From Spirochaetaceae bacterium (GTDB lineage Bacteria > Spirochaetota > Spirochaetia > Treponematales > Treponemataceae), in assembly GCA_017936665.1 (NCBI GenBank), contig JAGBFB010000012.1:1-54445 (forward strand): a stretch of 54,445 nt of DNA, given 5' to 3'. The translations under genes were made by a program, and so were the position numbers. Each line of letters starts with the position of its first letter. Position 1 is the stretch's first letter. The notes below the pieces were generated by a model. The model was not told the origin of the DNA, made no database searches, and worked only from the letters and a program-made list of their open reading frames with translations. Of the stretch, positions 1,712 to 9,373 are shown one piece after another.

Positions 1712-3898
1712 ATGTCTAAGAAAGTTTTTAATGTTTTTAGTATTTTATGTTTTGCTCTAGTTCTATGTTTTATGGGATGTACTGAATTAATTAATCCCAA
1801 AACGGAAACTGACATCAATTTGAATATTGATTTATCAAAGATTATAAAATCTACAAGAAATACAGAAGAAATACAAAGTTCAGTATCAATTGGTGAAAAT
1901 CCAACAATAAAAGTTGCAATATATGATGCAAAAAAATACAACGCAACTACAAATTCAACTGATAATTTAGACTTAATCACAGAAGCTCAAGCAAAAATTG
2001 TAAATGATGAAGCAAAAGTTAAACTTAACAACATTCCTGTTGGAATTGACGCCATCGTTTTTGCAGAACTTTCTTTTTCAAATGGAAATTCTACAGAAGT
2101 TATGTACGCAGGAAATAGCGAAGTTTTTAGAGTTAAACCTACTGACAATAAAATAAGTTTAGTGTTGATGAAAGTTGAAGTTGATATTGAAGTTAAACCT
2201 GATGATTCAAAACCAGAAGAAATAATTAACGCAAAAGAACCTAAAATTATTGAACAACCTATGCCTTGTGTTAGAATTAATACTGAATCAGATAATGAGC
2301 CAGCAAAAACATATTTAACTTGTACTGCAAAATCTATCGATGGTGGAAATTTATCTTTTAAGTGGTGGTATAAATCCGAGGATAGTACTAATTTTGAAGA
2401 ATTTAATTCTATTTTAGAACCATCTTTAAATGATGATGGGTCTGTGACAAGTTCTACTATGCAGATTGAAGCTAATAAAAATGATAGCTTCTATTTTTAT
2501 TGTGAGGTTACTAACACAAATGAAAACGCAACAGAAAATAAAGTTGCTTCTGTACGCTCTAATACGGTACAAGTTGCTTGTATTGAAGGAACGGGAAATC
2601 AATTTACTCTTTTTCAAAAAAATTCAGATGGAACAGAACTTTCTAATGTTACAGGAGCAATTATCAGTAGTCTTTCTGAAGGAATCACAAAAGTTATCGT
2701 AACAAATCCACAAAGTTCAGATTCAGTATGGACTTATTTTGTTAAGCCAAATAATAATACTAGATTTACAGAAAGTGCAAATTACAAAGTTTCTGTAGAA
2801 TTAAAAGCAGATAAAACTACTGTTGTTGGAATTGCAGCGGCTAGGGCTGATTATTTTTTTACAGTAAACAGCGATTGGACTCCTTGTGAATTTGAAACTG
2901 GCTATGTAAAAGGCTCTACTGATCATGATTTTACGATTGGACTTGGCTTATCTTCTGAAATTGAAATTAGAAATCTTAAAATTGAAAAATTAGAAACAAC
3001 TGATACAATTGAACCAAGTTTAGTATTTGATATTTCAAAAGATGCAATTAATTCTTATCTAGAAAATAATAATAATAGACCAGGAAAAATTATTGAAGTT
3101 TCAAAAGAAACAAAATTTGAAAATAATTTAGGATATACCATCACAATTAATGCTCCTTTAAGCTATAAGGAAGCAACTGGGGCTACTGTACAAGATGTAA
3201 AACTACATTTACGCAGTTACGGAAAAGAAACAGGTGCAAATAGGGTTTCATTTAGAGTTGATAACCTTGGTGATAATACTTTTTATACTTCAGTAATGGC
3301 AGATACCGCAAATGAAAAATCAACAGCTTGGAATAATGGTACAAATCCAATTGACCCAGGAAAATTTGGTTCATATGAAATCGATTTCCCAAATTATGTA
3401 GCAAATGATGAATTAATTGTTGATGTTATTACAAGTTCAAATGAGGCTATTGCTGGGCCTATACAGTTGCATATTTCAGCATTTGCTGTAACAAAGGATT
3501 TTTCATATGATGACCCTCCATTTGCTAACAAATTTTTTGCAATTCAAATTGATGAGACTTGGGAAAAAATAGAAAACGGTGCTCCTTTCCCAAAAGAAGT
3601 TACAATTAAGGCAACTGATTGTATCAACTTTGATGTGGGACTTTTTAACGGTTTTAGTGATGAGCAGGGGACTCCTTCTGACTTTGTGGATGTTACTAGA
3701 TTTTTGTATACAGGTAATACAAATATTACAGATAAAATTACATATAAAGAAGAATACGATGATTCTGGAAATCCAAAATTTAAAATTACCAACAACTCCA
3801 ATGAAGAAAAAACAGTAAAAATTTCATTAAACGAAAACTATGAAGTGGTAATTGAAGAAAGTACTAGTACTTCAGGGGGGGGGAATTTCTCTAAATGA
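1712..3898 (+). CDS. Modular surface lipoprotein, segment 1 (lipidation signal, Ig-like and jelly-roll domains); broken at a G9 tract
   Basis: Start ATG 1712 follows GAGGTGG at 1699-1705. The N-terminus is a spirochaetal lipoprotein signal with hydrophobic core and lipobox FMGC (Cys23), so the product is exported and lipid-anchored. By eye: a linker domain at about 30-165, an Ig-like domain at about 180-290 with a 'FKWWY'...'FYFYCEV' core, then two beta-sandwich domains (about 300-430 and 430-590) whose pattern resembles carbohydrate-binding CBM4/9-type jelly rolls. The frame ends at TGA 3896-3898, just after nine G at 3875-3883. Without one G it would continue into the beta-helix segment that follows, so this looks like the front of a ~2,000-residue protein rather than a complete one. 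Domain names are inferred from pattern, not from a search. Confidence 0.75.
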   Translation: MSKKVFNVFSILCFALVLCFMGCTELINPKTETDINLNIDLSKIIKSTRNTEEIQSSVSIGENPTIKVAIYDAKKYNATTNSTDNLDLITEAQAKIVNDEAKVKLNNIPVGIDAIVFAELSFSNGNSTEVMYAGNSEVFRVKPTDNKISLVLMKVEVDIEVKPDDSKPEEIINAKEPKIIEQPMPCVRINTESDNEPAKTYLTCTAKSIDGGNLSFKWWYKSEDSTNFEEFNSILEPSLNDDGSVTSSTMQIEANKNDSFYFYCEVTNTNENATENKVASVRSNTVQVACIEGTGNQFTLFQKNSDGTELSNVTGAIISSLSEGITKVIVTNPQSSDSVWTYFVKPNNNTRFTESANYKVSVELKADKTTVVGIAAARADYFFTVNSDWTPCEFETGYVKGSTDHDFTIGLGLSSEIEIRNLKIEKLETTDTIEPSLVFDISKDAINSYLENNNNRPGKIIEVSKETKFENNLGYTITINAPLSYKEATGATVQDVKLHLRSYGKETGANRVSFRVDNLGDNTFYTSVMADTANEKSTAWNNGTNPIDPGKFGSYEIDFPNYVANDELIVDVITSSNEAIAGPIQLHISAFAVTKDFSYDDPPFANKFFAIQIDETWEKIENGAPFPKEVTIKATDCINFDVGLFNGFSDEQGTPSDFVDVTRFLYTGNTNITDKITYKEEYDDSGNPKFKITNNSNEEKTVKISLNENYEVVIEESTSTSGGGNFSK
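3875..3883 (+). repeat. Poly-G tract (G9) at the first module boundary
   Basis: Nine consecutive G lie inside the codons for a Ser-Gly-Gly-Gly linker. With nine G the frame stops 15 bases later. With eight G (or eleven) it reads SGGG-ISLNEISS and stays open for 2.1 kb. Poly-G runs of this length are known slippage sites in treponemes (for example at tpr and other surface genes of T. pallidum). An assembly or sequencing error cannot be excluded from one sequence. Confidence 0.85.
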
Positions 3899-5978
3899 AA
3901 TATCATCCTGGGAAGTATTAGTAACTAAAATTGATAGTCTAAGCGATTATATAACTACAACAGATTTTATAATTATAAATGATTTGACTGCAACTTCTAC
4001 AATTACAGTAAATAAGCCTATTAAGATTATAGCTGAAAGTCCTGTTACAATTACTCGTGGAAACACTACAGGTAATACAAGTTTCACAGATGTATTCTTT
4101 AAAGTAGAGACATCGGGAAGTTTAGAATTAGAAGGAAAAGAAAACAGCACAATCACTCTAGACGGTGGAAATGCAAATGAATCTCCAATTTTAGCAACTG
4201 CTCCGTTAATTACAAGTAGCGGTAATTTAACTCTTACAAATTGTATTTTGCAAAAAAATAAGAATACATCGACTACTCCAGGAGGGGCAATTAACATTTC
4301 TGCGGGAACTTTCACTATGAATGGTGGCGTGATTGGTTCAGAAGTTACAGAAAATAATTCATTAAAAACTTATAGTTGGCAATATGCTGCAACTGATTCT
4401 GACTTCTCAAACTATGCCTCTGCTGGTGGAGGCGGAATCTATGTGGCAAGTGGAGATGTTACAATAAACGGCGGAAAGATTTCATATAACTATACCCGAA
4501 ATCCTGAAAGTGATTGTGGAGGTAACACACCAGAAAATACCGCTCATGGTGGAGGAATATCAATAGTAAAAGGTTCTCTATCTCTTATAAACTCAGAAGT
4601 TTCATATAATAGTGGTTATCAAGGTGGAGGTATTCGCTGTTATAACGATAATACTTATAATGCTGGTACACTGACATTAAATAAAACTCTAATTAAAGGA
4701 AATACTTCAAACCCTTATAGCGGTAGCAGTTTTGGTGGTGGTTTGATGGTTAAAAACTTTAATGTAACATTTGAAGAAACAACTGAATCAACTATTGAAC
4801 AAAACTACAGTGGTGACGGAGGTGCATTATTCTTAGAAAATACTACTTCAACACTAAAAAATATAACTATTCAAAATAACTCTTACAAACCAAATGGATA
4901 TCATTATGGTTCTGAACTGTTGTTGTGGGCTAATGCAAATGTTTCAATAGATGACTCAAATGTAAACATTGCAAGTACAGAAGTTGAAACACGAGGTATT
5001 TTCATTAACAACAATGCTAATACGCTAAAACTATCCGGTGATGCAAAACTTGATGCTCCAATTTACTTAACAAATGGAACAACTGTAACTGTTGCCGGAT
5101 ATCTTTCATCGAATACACCTCCAGTTGCCACAATTACTCCAGAAAAATATGAAGAAAGCACACAAGTTCTAACAGCGGACGATACTACTTTACTTGCACA
5201 GTCTGTTGGTAAGTTTGCTTTATCAGATGAAACATATTCAATCGGCAATGATGGAAAGATTGCATCAAATCAATCAAGTGCAACTAGTTTAACACAAGAT
5301 TATTTGAAAGATAATGTTAAAACAAATACCTCTGGTGATTCCTATTACGAACTTGTAGCAGGAGAATATTGCGTATCTGCAAATCTTAAACTTGAATATC
5401 CAATTCAAATAAATGCAATTGGTGGCGAAGTTAAATTATATTCAAACGCAAATTACACAATATCTTGTGCAGAAAATTTTAATAACTCTGCAAATAGTGC
5501 TATGATTGTACTTCCAATGAGTGCTGGAACATTAACTCTAGGCGGTGGAAACGGAACTCTTACCATAGATGGCACAACCAATTCTACTACAAATTTAGAC
5601 TATCTTGTTATGTCCTCTGGAACTTTTAACTTAAGCGATAAGGTTACTATCACCAACGGAAATGTAAATTTTGGTGCTGTTTACATTGGTGGTGGAACAT
5701 TTAATATGACCGGTGGTGAAATTAAATATAATAAAGCTACTCAATCCAGTTATTCAGGTATCTATGTTCTTGGTAACATAAATATTACAGGTGGCTCTAT
5801 TTGCGATAATTATGTAGAAGAAACTAATAACGGAGCATCAATATATAATAATAAATCAGATGAAATAACTGTTTTAGATCAAAAAATTTCTGCTAATGGA
5901 GGACATTTTACAAAAAACATAATTGATGGAGAAGTTAAAGATGTAACAACTAGTGGTGGTGGAAACGAGTCACTATAG
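3882..5978 (+). CDS. Modular surface lipoprotein, segment 2 (right-handed beta-helix modules)
   Basis: Open for ~700 codons in the frame one base out from segment 1. It has no ribosome binding site, and its only initiator-like codon upstream is a TTG inside segment 1, so it is best read as a continuation. The sequence is rich in short repeats such as 'GGAINISAGTFTMNGG', 'GGGIYVASGDVTINGG' and 'GGGISIVKGSLSLINS', typical of parallel beta-helix rungs in surface proteins. One helix ends near 'IYLTNGTTVTVAGYLSS...KFALSDETYSIG'; a second runs from about 5290. The segment ends with TTSGGG and a TAG at 5976-5978. The usual role of such helices is surface exposure and binding; no specific ligand can be named. 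Confidence 0.7.
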   Translation, partial: GISLNEISSWEVLVTKIDSLSDYITTTDFIIINDLTATSTITVNKPIKIIAESPVTITRGNTTGNTSFTDVFFKVETSGSLELEGKENSTITLDGGNANESPILATAPLITSSGNLTLTNCILQKNKNTSTTPGGAINISAGTFTMNGGVIGSEVTENNSLKTYSWQYAATDSDFSNYASAGGGGIYVASGDVTINGGKISYNYTRNPESDCGGNTPENTAHGGGISIVKGSLSLINSEVSYNSGYQGGGIRCYNDNTYNAGTLTLNKTLIKGNTSNPYSGSSFGGGLMVKNFNVTFEETTESTIEQNYSGDGGALFLENTTSTLKNITIQNNSYKPNGYHYGSELLLWANANVSIDDSNVNIASTEVETRGIFINNNANTLKLSGDAKLDAPIYLTNGTTVTVAGYLSSNTPPVATITPEKYEESTQVLTADDTTLLAQSVGKFALSDETYSIGNDGKIASNQSSATSLTQDYLKDNVKTNTSGDSYYELVAGEYCVSANLKLEYPIQINAIGGEVKLYSNANYTISCAENFNNSANSAMIVLPMSAGTLTLGGGNGTLTIDGTTNSTTNLDYLVMSSGTFNLSDKVTITNGNVNFGAVYIGGGTFNMTGGEIKYNKATQSSYSGIYVLGNINITGGSICDNYVEETNNGASIYNNKSDEITVLDQKISANGGHFTKNIIDGEVKDVTTSGGGNESL
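5954..5966 (+). other. Second frame junction (GGTGGTGGAAAC), no long homopolymer
   Basis: The reading frame must move by -1 (or gain one base) here to join segment 2 to segment 3. The codons are again Ser-Gly-Gly-Gly, but they are written GGT GGT GGA instead of a G-run. Downstream, the alternative frame gives 'VTIEGAYYVSAYGNDSNDGLT', a good beta-helix N-cap. The break could be a fixed one-base deletion, a decayed G-tract, a sequence error, or a -1 frameshift site. Confidence 0.6.
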
Positions 5979-6892
5979 AAGGTGCTTATTATGTTAGTGC
6001 TTATGGTAATGATTCTAATGATGGATTGACAGCAGAAAAACCTTTACTAACACTAAGTAGTGCAATTGAAAAGGCTAATAATAATTCTGATTCAAAAACT
6101 GTTTACGTTATTGGTGAGTTAGTTGGAGATGAGGCATCCTATTCTGGATTCTATATTTCGAAGGATGTAGGAACAAATGATTCTCCAATTAATATTATTG
6201 GTTATCCTGATGAGATAGATGATGTCTTGACAGTTGGTGACAATGCAGGTAGTAGAGTAGTTTTTGTTAATTCTAATTCATATATAACTTTTAAGGATTT
6301 AACTATTACGGGTGGAAATGTAGATCAATCTGGTTCTGCAATGAATTTAAGTTATTGTACAGTAACTTTAGATAATGTAACTATAACTGGTAATTCTTCT
6401 TCTAGTAGTTGTACTTTTGGTTCTAATACTTATTATTCAGATGGCATTGAAGTAGGTTCTAATTGTACATTGAATATAATAAAATCTTCTATTACGAATA
6501 ATATTCGTGTAAGTGGAGCTAGTGATTCACCTGCTAATGTAACAATTGGTACTGAATGTAATGTTAGCAATATTTATTTAGTTTCAGATTCTTCTACATG
6601 TACATTTGATAGTAATATGAAAATAAATGGAAATGTATATATTTGTTCAACATCTGCAAACCCACCTGTTCCTGCAATTTATTTGTCATCTAGTTTGAGT
6701 AATTATTCTAGTGATAATAGAATTATAATTACATATGAAGATTGTTCTGAAGTTGTAAACAAACAACTAATTTCTCTTAAGGATGGTGCAAACTTTAATC
6801 TTGCAGATGAAGTAAAGAAATTTACTCTTTCTGATGCAAACTACACAATCTCTGATGAAGGTATAGTTGTTCAAAATTCGGGGGGGGGATAG
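5954..6892 (+). CDS. Modular surface lipoprotein, segment 3 (beta-helix with DUF1565-like N-cap); broken at a G9 tract
   Basis: The frame is open from 5954 to TAG 6890-6892. It begins with 'YYVSAYGNDSNDGLTAEKPL', the pattern of the DUF1565/right-handed beta-helix start, followed by rungs such as 'YITFKDLTITGG' and 'TVTLDNVTITGN'. The end, 'KKFTLSDANYTISDEG', echoes 'GKFALSDETYSIGNDG' in segment 2, showing that the two are related modules. The only initiator-like codon near the front (TTG 6026) has no ribosome binding site, so separate translation is unlikely. The stop comes directly after the second G9 tract. Confidence 0.65.
   Translation, partial: WWWKRVTIEGAYYVSAYGNDSNDGLTAEKPLLTLSSAIEKANNNSDSKTVYVIGELVGDEASYSGFYISKDVGTNDSPINIIGYPDEIDDVLTVGDNAGSRVVFVNSNSYITFKDLTITGGNVDQSGSAMNLSYCTVTLDNVTITGNSSSSSCTFGSNTYYSDGIEVGSNCTLNIIKSSITNNIRVSGASDSPANVTIGTECNVSNIYLVSDSSTCTFDSNMKINGNVYICSTSANPPVPAIYLSSSLSNYSSDNRIIITYEDCSEVVNKQLISLKDGANFNLADEVKKFTLSDANYTISDEGIVVQNSGGG
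6880..6888 (+). repeat. Poly-G tract (G9) at the third module boundary
   Basis: Nine G follow TC, again in a Ser-Gly-Gly-Gly linker. With nine G the frame stops at once (GGA TAG). With ten G (or seven) it reads SGGG-IANYTDTDG and continues into the FGE-sulfatase domain. The architecture copies that of the tract at 3875. Confidence 0.85.
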
Positions 6893-7815
6893 CCAATTAC
6901 ACTGATACAGATGGAATTTCAATTTCAGATAATCTATATCAAAAAACTTCTCTTGTAACAGTAATTTCACAAGAAACAACTATAGATTGTTCTGACGAAG
7001 TTGAATGTGTTTTTGGTTTGTATCGTGGTGGTTCTGTAACATTAAGTCCTTTTGCAATGGGGCAGTATGAAGTAACTCAAGAATTATACCAAGCAATTAT
7101 GACAGAAAATCCAAGTTATTTTAAAGATACAAATATAACTTCTGGCGAAACTCAAAATTTGCGTCCTGTTGATAGTGTAAATTGGTATCAAGCAGTTGCA
7201 TTTTGTAATGAGCTAACAAAACAAACTTTTGGGGAAACAAACTGTGTTTATTATAGTGATTCATCTTATTCTACTGTATATACCACTGACGATGCATCTA
7301 ATAAAAAACTTCCATACTTTGACCAATTAAAAAAAGGTTATCGCTTACCAACTGAAGCTGAATGGGAATTTGCAGCCCGCGGTGGAGATGAATATGAACC
7401 TGATTGGGATTACGCATACCCTGGAGTTCAGTCTGATTCTTCCTTAGGATTGGAAGTTCTTTGTCCTTATGCCTGGTTTAAATATTTAAATTCTAGTTAT
7501 TCTGAAAATGATAAAACTCATGAAGTAGGGTTAAAATTTCCAAATAGTTTAACTTTGTATGATATGGCTGGTAATGTACAAGAATGGTGTTGGGATTATT
7601 ATGTTAAAACTACAACAGAGACTCTTGATTCAATAGTAAAAAATCCTACAGGTTATGAACCTGATAGTTCTAATTCTAATAGAACTGTTCGCGGTGGTTA
7701 TTGGGAAACAGAGGATTCATACTGCTATTCTACATATCGAGATGGATGTGGACCTGCAACAGAAAATCAATGGACTCTTAATACACTAGGTTTCAGAATC
7801 TGTCGTTCATTGTAA
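6889..7815 (+). CDS. Modular surface lipoprotein, segment 4 (C-terminal FGE-sulfatase/SUMF1-like domain)
   Basis: Open from the G-tract to TAA 7815, about 308 codons. The FGE-sulfatase fold is clear: 'MGQYEVTQELYQAIM', 'PVDSVNWYQAVAFCNELT', 'YRLPTEAEWEFAARGG', 'NVQEWCWDYY', 'RTVRGGYW' and 'LGFRICRSL'. In true formylglycine-generating enzymes two cysteines sit near the C-terminal SYCYRYR motif. Here 'SYCYST' keeps the second cysteine, but the position five residues earlier is not cysteine, so C-alpha-formylglycine activity is doubtful. Such domains are common tails of treponemal surface proteins. There is no plausible independent start: the TTG at 7018 falls at the domain edge without a ribosome binding site. 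Confidence 0.75.
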   Translation: MANYTDTDGISISDNLYQKTSLVTVISQETTIDCSDEVECVFGLYRGGSVTLSPFAMGQYEVTQELYQAIMTENPSYFKDTNITSGETQNLRPVDSVNWYQAVAFCNELTKQTFGETNCVYYSDSSYSTVYTTDDASNKKLPYFDQLKKGYRLPTEAEWEFAARGGDEYEPDWDYAYPGVQSDSSLGLEVLCPYAWFKYLNSSYSENDKTHEVGLKFPNSLTLYDMAGNVQEWCWDYYVKTTTETLDSIVKNPTGYEPDSSNSNRTVRGGYWETEDSYCYSTYRDGCGPATENQWTLNTLGFRICRSL

Positions 7816-8770: not shown

Positions 8771-9373
8771 ATGTTTAACAGTATTTTTGGCACAATTACC
8801 GCTAAATTTCCTCAAATTTTGCATTTAGAAACTTCCTCTGGAATTGAATGGAGTTTATCTGTTTCAGACTCCACTCTAAATTCACTTTCTACAGTAGGAA
8901 GTCAGGTAAGAATTTACACTTGGATGTATCACAAAGAAGATGCAATGAAACTTTTTGGCTTTTCTTCAATAGAAGAGCGTTCTGTTTTTTTAGATTTATT
9001 AAAAGTCGATGGAGTTGGGCCTAAAGGTGCATTAAAAATCCTTTCTTCTTTACCTTATACTTTACTTGTAGAAGCCTTAGAACAAGAAGATTTATCAAAA
9101 TTAGAAAAAATTTCTGGTATTGGCAAAAAAACTGCACAAAAAATGCTACTAACTTTAAAAGGAAAACTCACTCTTCTTTCCGAAAATGAAAAATCAACTG
9201 GCAAAGTTTCCGTTTGGAACGATGTAATTATCGCATTAACAAATATGGGCTACGATAAAAAGACCTGCGAAACTGTTGTAGAAAAAATTGCAAAAGACCT
9301 AGATGCGTCTTTAACTCAAAGTGCCAAAGAAGAAATTATCTTTAGAAAGGCAATTGTGGAGCTTTCATTATGA
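8771..9373 (+). CDS. ruvA: Holliday junction branch-migration protein RuvA
   Basis: A 200-residue DNA-binding partner of RuvB that holds the four-way junction as a tetramer. Seen: the N-terminal OB-fold start 'MFNSIFGTI', the helix-hairpin-helix pair '[13 protein letters not shown]' and '[21 protein letters not shown]', and a C-terminal three-helix domain ending '[13 protein letters not shown]'. Length is typical. The stop overlaps the ruvB start by four bases, showing translational coupling. Upstream, TATAGT at 8752-8757 could be a second -10 box, but no clear -35 box accompanies it. Confidence 0.95.

What the first reader, a model, noticed from the sequence alone, without database searches (positions are those of the whole stretch)
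1712..7815. A ~2,000-residue modular lipoprotein cut into four frames, two cuts exactly on G9 tracts
Four consecutive open segments (1712-3898, 3882-5978, 5954-6892, 6889-7815) belong to one architecture: lipoprotein signal, Ig and jelly-roll domains, two beta-helix modules, FGE-sulfatase domain. Only the first has a start and ribosome site. The first and third cuts are runs of nine G inside a Ser-Gly-Gly-Gly linker, and losing or gaining one G restores the frame (8 G at the first, 10 G at the third). This fits slipped-strand phase variation that would set how many modules the surface protein shows: a length switch rather than a simple on/off switch. Poly-G phase variation is established in treponemes; switching module number at linkers is, as far as I know, not described.
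Basis: partly seen in the sequence, partly recalled or inferred. Interest (0 to 1): 0.85.

Follow-up and report, generated by a model that had tools for sequence, protein, structure and literature searches.

The report
Poly-G switches in treponeme surface lipoproteins
A gut-type treponeme carries a discrete class of 8-10-base G runs, most of them placed to switch surface lipoproteins on and off; in one large modular lipoprotein two of these runs sit between modules, so that slippage could change how long the protein is, but a third, non-repetitive break means the full four-part switch cannot work in the sequenced copy.

Summary
Four open frames (1712-3898, 3882-5978, 5954-6892, 6889-7815) are split by G9 at 3875-3883, a non-tract break inside 5954-5975, and G9 at 6880-6888. 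Paralogues show they are one gene: segment 1's N-domain and segment 4's FGE unit are the two ends of intact lipoproteins elsewhere in the genome, and segment 1 ends where a stand-alone paralogue ends.

The tracts are not chance. Genome-wide, 35 runs of G8-G10 form a separate class (only 3 G6 and 1 G7 in 505 kb). Most mark lipoproteins: 20 promoters of the form TTGAC-G(7-10)-TANNNT, all 20 followed by a lipoprotein, four tracts just after the lipobox, and three deep inside lipoprotein genes, two of them here.

So phase variation is well supported, by inference, for tract 1: a 733-residue three-domain form versus about 1,430 residues with the beta-helix segment. The proposed four-step length switch is only partly supported, because break 2 has no repeat, so segments 3-4 cannot be reached by G-slippage. 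No reads or sister strains were available, so no length change was seen in the window gene. A tandem duplicated promoter pair (G8 versus G9) shows that tracts change length in this genome. The mechanism is known; the promoter array and linker placement are a new variant.

The parts
1712..3898 (+). Segment 1, 728 codons: lipoprotein signal (lipobox FMGC), N-domain (residues 1-161), Ig-like module (about 171-290), jelly-roll module (about 326-717), ending in SGGG and a stop four codons after the tract
   Evidence: N-domain matches L026/L025/L050; jelly roll matches L013 486-aa lipoprotein to its C-terminus
3875..3883 (+). Tract 1, G9 in the SGGG linker; current length puts segment 1 out of frame with segment 2
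3882..5978 (+). Segment 2, 698 codons, probable right-handed beta-helix module(s), no own start, ending in SGGGNESL
   Evidence: strand pattern and weak fold matches to polysaccharide lyases
5954..5975 (+). Break 2: frame change in GGTGGTGGAAACGAGTCACTA, inside a Gly linker, without any homopolymer; not switchable by G slippage
   Evidence: segment 3's frame has a stop at 5951-5953, segment 2's at 5976-5978
5954..6892 (+). Segment 3, 312 codons, probable beta-helix module (starts YYVSAYGNDSNDG), ends NSGGG, no own start
6880..6888 (+). Tract 2, G9 in the NSGGG linker; current length puts segment 3 out of frame with segment 4
6889..7815 (+). Segment 4, 308 codons, FGE-sulfatase/C-type-lectin-like domain with conserved motifs; same C-terminal unit as two paralogues
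   Evidence: PF03781 E 1.2e-33; 41% identity to L026 and L025 C-terminal units

Best explanation
The locus is one modular surface lipoprotein gene of a treponeme, with poly-G slippage tracts at module boundaries. In the sequenced state tract 1 is out of frame, so the cell would make a lipoprotein of about 730 residues with three folded modules. Slipped-strand change of tract 1 during replication (inferred) would extend it by the beta-helix segment to about 1,430 residues. A fixed frame change in the next linker, possibly a former tract broken up by substitutions, currently cuts off segments 3 and 4, so tract 2 is idle. The gene is a member of a genome-wide set of G8-G10 switches that act mainly on lipoproteins, most through the -35/-10 spacer and some by frame. 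Shown: anatomy, paralogy, the discrete tract class, its lipoprotein association and a tract-length difference between duplicated promoters. Inferred: slippage at tract 1, stability and export of the short form, and any function of the length change.
For: Run lengths are bimodal: 51 G5, 3 G6, 1 G7, 12 G8, 20 G9, 3 G10 in 505 kb that includes every G8+ tract of the genome. A mode at 9 is also what phase-variable poly-G shows in Campylobacter (53% 9G; PMC6321876) and T. pallidum tprL (7-11, mostly 9; PMC7864442). 20 of 20 TTGAC-G7..10-TANNNT promoters precede a lipoprotein; the pattern occurs 18 times in this genome and 0 times read backwards. L017 holds a tandem gene copy whose promoter, in the stretch displayed downstream of the -35 region, differs only by G8 versus G9. 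GGG is 4.9% of glycine codons here and break 2 shows the same linker can be written GGT GGT GGA, so GGG GGG GGG is a nucleotide feature. Boundaries: segment 1 ends where a stand-alone paralogue ends; segment 4 begins about 7 residues before the conserved start of the paralogues' last FGE unit. None of the three lesions lies in module-coding sequence, and the window's other genes show no obvious split frames.
Against: No read data, no second strain and no orthologue of segments 1-3 in the genomes searched, so no length change is seen in the window gene itself. Break 2 is not a repeat, which a decaying gene would also show. A/T runs drop sharply above 8 (298 of length 8, 41 of 9, 4 of 10), so technical shortening of homopolymers is not excluded.
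Confidence: 0.6

Rival explanations
1. Plain on/off switch: the short form is degraded or useless, and tract 1 merely turns the protein off, as tracts placed after the lipobox do.
For: In the same genome four tracts lie directly after the lipobox, where the off product is only tens of residues. The mid-gene tracts of C13 (604 aa, then 269 aa in another frame) and of the same-genus genome G002 (about 467 aa, then about 977 aa in another frame) do not clearly fall between modules.
Against: Here the cut is at about residue 722, at a boundary where a natural paralogue ends, so the short product is a complete domain set.
Confidence: 0.35
2. A decaying pseudogene: three frame lesions in one gene, one of them not reversible; the tracts are relics.
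For: Break 2 has no repeat; both tracts are out of frame; no orthologue preserves the architecture.
Against: About 2,040 codons without an internal stop, FGE motifs intact, and all three lesions confined to linkers. Tracts out of frame are expected about two thirds of the time for random tract lengths.
Confidence: 0.22
3. Assembly or base-calling error in homopolymer length, so that the gene is really one intact frame.
For: G9 runs are error-prone on some platforms; A/T runs above 8 are scarce; the sequencing method is unknown.
Against: The other genes of the window show no obvious split frames; three of four post-lipobox tracts are in frame; break 2 is not in a homopolymer, so homopolymer error cannot explain it.
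Confidence: 0.12
4. Translational or transcriptional slippage on G9 yields a fixed mixture of lengths in every cell without DNA change.
For: Long G runs can be slippery (general knowledge); each tract separates two long open frames.
Against: The same tracts sit in untranslated promoter spacers, which slippage in expression would not explain; no slippery heptamer at break 2.
Confidence: 0.05

Closest known systems
T. pallidum poly-G phase variation (tp0126, tprE/G/J, tprL)
   Same: Spirochaete; G tracts of about 7-11 with a mode at 9; for tp0126 the tract lies between -35 and -10 and sets their spacing (PMC7864442)
   Different: Here about 20 lipoproteins share one promoter design, and tracts also sit in inter-module linkers of a large lipoprotein; length variation is not yet observed here
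Campylobacter poly-G phasome
   Same: Poly-G tracts peaked at 9-10, mostly inside reading frames as translational switches (PMC6321876)
   Different: There truncation is described as typically giving a non-functional product; here the cut at tract 1 is between modules
Neisseria meningitidis porA and Mycoplasma hyorhinis Vlp promoters
   Same: Homopolymer in or near the promoter tunes transcription (porA as described in PMC7864442; Vlp, a set of lipoproteins with poly-A, from my own knowledge)
   Different: A single gene (porA) or another repeat base (Vlp); no mid-gene linker tracts
Intragenic poly-G in T. pallidum tp0798
   Same: A poly-G deep inside a reading frame (+826) of a treponeme (Table in PMC7864442)
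   Different: Not described there as lying between modules of a surface protein

Membership tests
Simple-sequence-repeat (poly-G) phase-variable gene | Homopolymeric tract of 8 or more G, beyond chance | tested here: met
   G9 twice; genome-wide bimodal run lengths
Simple-sequence-repeat (poly-G) phase-variable gene | Tract positioned to alter frame or promoter | tested here: met
   Frames change at both tracts; promoter tracts in the -35/-10 spacer
Simple-sequence-repeat (poly-G) phase-variable gene | Tract length varies among cells or strains | tested here: inconclusive
   Not measurable for this gene; a duplicated promoter pair differs G8/G9 (L017)
Simple-sequence-repeat (poly-G) phase-variable gene | Reversible change of expression or product | not testable with these tools
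   Needs reads, colonies and protein
Linker length switch (module number) | Tract lies at an independently defined module boundary | tested here: met
   Tract 1: end of paralogue L013 486 aa; tract 2: start of the paralogues' FGE unit
Linker length switch (module number) | All modules reachable by slippage alone | tested here: not met
   Break at 5954-5975 holds no repeat
FGE-sulfatase domain family (PF03781) | Profile match above the curated cut-off | tested here: met
   117.2 bits against 23.3
FGE-sulfatase domain family (PF03781) | Catalytic formylglycine-generating activity | not tested
   In lipoproteins the fold often serves binding; general knowledge

The most novel reading that the evidence does not exclude
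A surface protein whose number of exposed modules is set by independent poly-G tracts in successive linkers (tract 1, a frozen former tract at break 2, and tract 2), giving a ladder of lengths, inside a treponeme that uses the same tract class to switch some 20 other lipoproteins combinatorially.
Probability: 0.2. Interest if true: 0.75.

Novelty: new variant of a known kind. Interest (0 to 1): 0.56.

Why it matters
If slippage at tract 1 is shown, a bacterium would be changing the reach and binding repertoire of one surface protein rather than only switching it off. The wider array of about 20 lipoprotein promoters with the same G-tract design would make this organism a compact natural system for testing how promoter spacing switches combine, outside T. 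pallidum, whose genetics are difficult.

Tried and rejected
Orthologues with other tract lengths: none found for segments 1-3 in relatives, for segment 1 in genome contigs or for segment 2 in viral contigs. The promoter pattern in viral contigs gave three matches without the lipoprotein promoter context. Single-sequence structure prediction gave low confidence (segment 2 pLDDT 56, segment 1 pLDDT 43), so fold matches are only suggestive. One relatives pattern search was badly designed and counted single tracts several times; only its positions were used. Programmed -1 frameshifting at break 2 was considered and rejected: no slippery heptamer in the zero frame. Restart of translation for segment 3 was considered and rejected: the ATG at about 5992 is out of its frame. 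A diversity-generating retroelement acting on this gene was considered and rejected: the element found targets another lipoprotein.

Full report
WHAT IS THERE. Segment 1 (1712-3898) starts with ATG after a GAGGTGG site and a lipobox. The window has G/C runs up to 5 and then only these two runs of 9. The third cut, between segments 2 and 3, is confined to 5954-5975 because segment 3's frame has a stop at 5951-5953 and segment 2's ends at 5976-5978. That stretch is GGTGGTGGAAACGAG..., a Gly linker without a homopolymer.

IS IT ONE GENE. Yes, by paralogy. Three intact lipoproteins of the same genome (L026 on C41, L025 on C40, L050 on C12) carry the N-domain of segment 1, residues 1-161 (E 1e-22 to 3e-15), and FGE domains like segment 4 (best E 2e-63; 41% identity over about 320 residues for the first two). 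So the two ends of the split series are the two ends of a known local family, with other modules in the middle. The jelly-roll part of segment 1 (338-717) matches a 486-residue lipoprotein on C7 that ends 11 residues after the match; segment 1 ends at the same place. Segment 4 begins a few residues before the conserved start (GISLNGKIYDKTS in the paralogues, DGISISDNLYQKTS here). Thus tract 1 and tract 2 lie at module boundaries defined without reference to the tracts.

THE TRACT CLASS. The genome (2.58 Mb, 43 contigs) has 35 tracts of G8 or more: 12 G8, 20 G9, 3 G10. In 505 kb read, which includes all of them, G6 and G7 occur 3 times and once, so G8-G10 is a class of its own. By position: 19, or 20 with one G7, lie between a TTGAC -35 box and a TANNNT -10 box, mostly 16 bp from the hexamer, and all 20 are followed by an ORF with a lipoprotein signal (lipobox judged by eye on the printed translations). 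Four lie just after a lipobox, three of them in frame. Three lie deep in lipoprotein genes: two in the window and one on C13. One lies upstream of another lipoprotein in a non-canonical setting. The remaining eight are in or near other genes or between genes. By a crude rule only a few of about 49 window ORFs look like lipoproteins, so the association is strong. The TTGAC-G promoter pattern occurs 18 times here, 0 times when read backwards, and only 4 times in 144 other genomes of the family. In L017 two tandem gene copies have the same sequence from the -35 region onward in the displayed stretch, except for G8 versus G9, which is a tract-length change that has happened.

MECHANISM. Slipped-strand change of poly-G is established in treponemes, including a tract between -35 and -10 that sets spacing (tp0126) and lengths of 7-11 with most at 9 (PMC7864442). 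Campylobacter poly-G switches also peak at 9 (PMC6321876). The most likely reading is that tract 1 switches this protein between a three-module form of about 730 residues (sequenced state) and a form of about 1,430 residues. Shown: anatomy, boundaries, tract class, association, one length difference in a duplicated promoter. Inferred: slippage at tract 1, stability of the short form, function. Segments 3 and 4 cannot be reached by G slippage in this copy; tract 2 is idle unless break 2 is absent in other cells. Break 2 has the linker sequence SGGG written GGT GGT GGA and is about as long as a tract, so it may be a former tract interrupted by substitutions, but that is a guess. I did not write out or fold a mended reading frame.

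LIMITS. No reads, no sister strain, unknown sequencing method. A/T runs fall sharply above 8, so technical shortening of homopolymers cannot be excluded, but the window's other genes show no obvious split frames, and break 2 is not in a homopolymer. Domain calls for segments 1-3, apart from paralogue matches, are weak.

BEYOND THE WINDOW. Poly-G tracts occur in most related treponeme genomes (35 of 39), some beside -10-like boxes of lipoproteins. The same-genus genome G002 has a lipoprotein cut by G10 about 467 residues in, with about 977 residues open in another frame. Mid-gene tracts in long lipoproteins are therefore not unique to this gene, although those on C13 and in G002 do not clearly lie between modules.

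VERDICT. Observation confirmed; interpretation partly supported. The mechanism is known. The shared promoter array and the linker placement are a new variant. The full length-dial is possible but contradicted in this copy by break 2.

Noticed in passing
L009, L010, L011, L017 (6898, 7425), L018, L020-L023, L025, L026, L029-L031, L033, L034, L037, L038, L052: Twenty lipoprotein genes share a promoter TTGAC-G7..10-TANNNT with the G tract in the spacer; essentially absent from 144 other genomes of the family.
   Followed up: yes
L017:6898-6905 and L017:7425-7433: Tandem lipoprotein copies with matching promoters differing by G8 versus G9, a natural tract-length change.
   Followed up: yes
L151:7673-13229: A diversity-generating retroelement: reverse transcriptase, template repeat 8885-9006, Avd, and a 1135-aa lipoprotein with two variable repeats; 21 of 22 and 14 of 15 base substitutions are at template adenines.
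   Followed up: partly
L032:5382-5389: A lipoprotein of about 604 aa cut by a G8, with 269 aa open in another frame: another mid-gene tract.
   Followed up: partly
L203 (G002:C9): In a same-genus genome a lipoprotein is cut by G10 after about 467 residues, with about 977 residues open in another frame.
   Followed up: partly
L019:6912-6919 and L019:7093-7101: A small gene with two G tracts (G8 and G9) within about 180 bases, a second double-tract gene.
   Followed up: no
L018:540-549: G10 beside a -10-like box upstream of a short peptide with a double-glycine-type leader.
   Followed up: no
own genome, 505 kb read: A/T homopolymers fall off sharply above length 8 (298, 41, 4, 1 for 8, 9, 10, 11): selection or a technical effect.
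   Followed up: no
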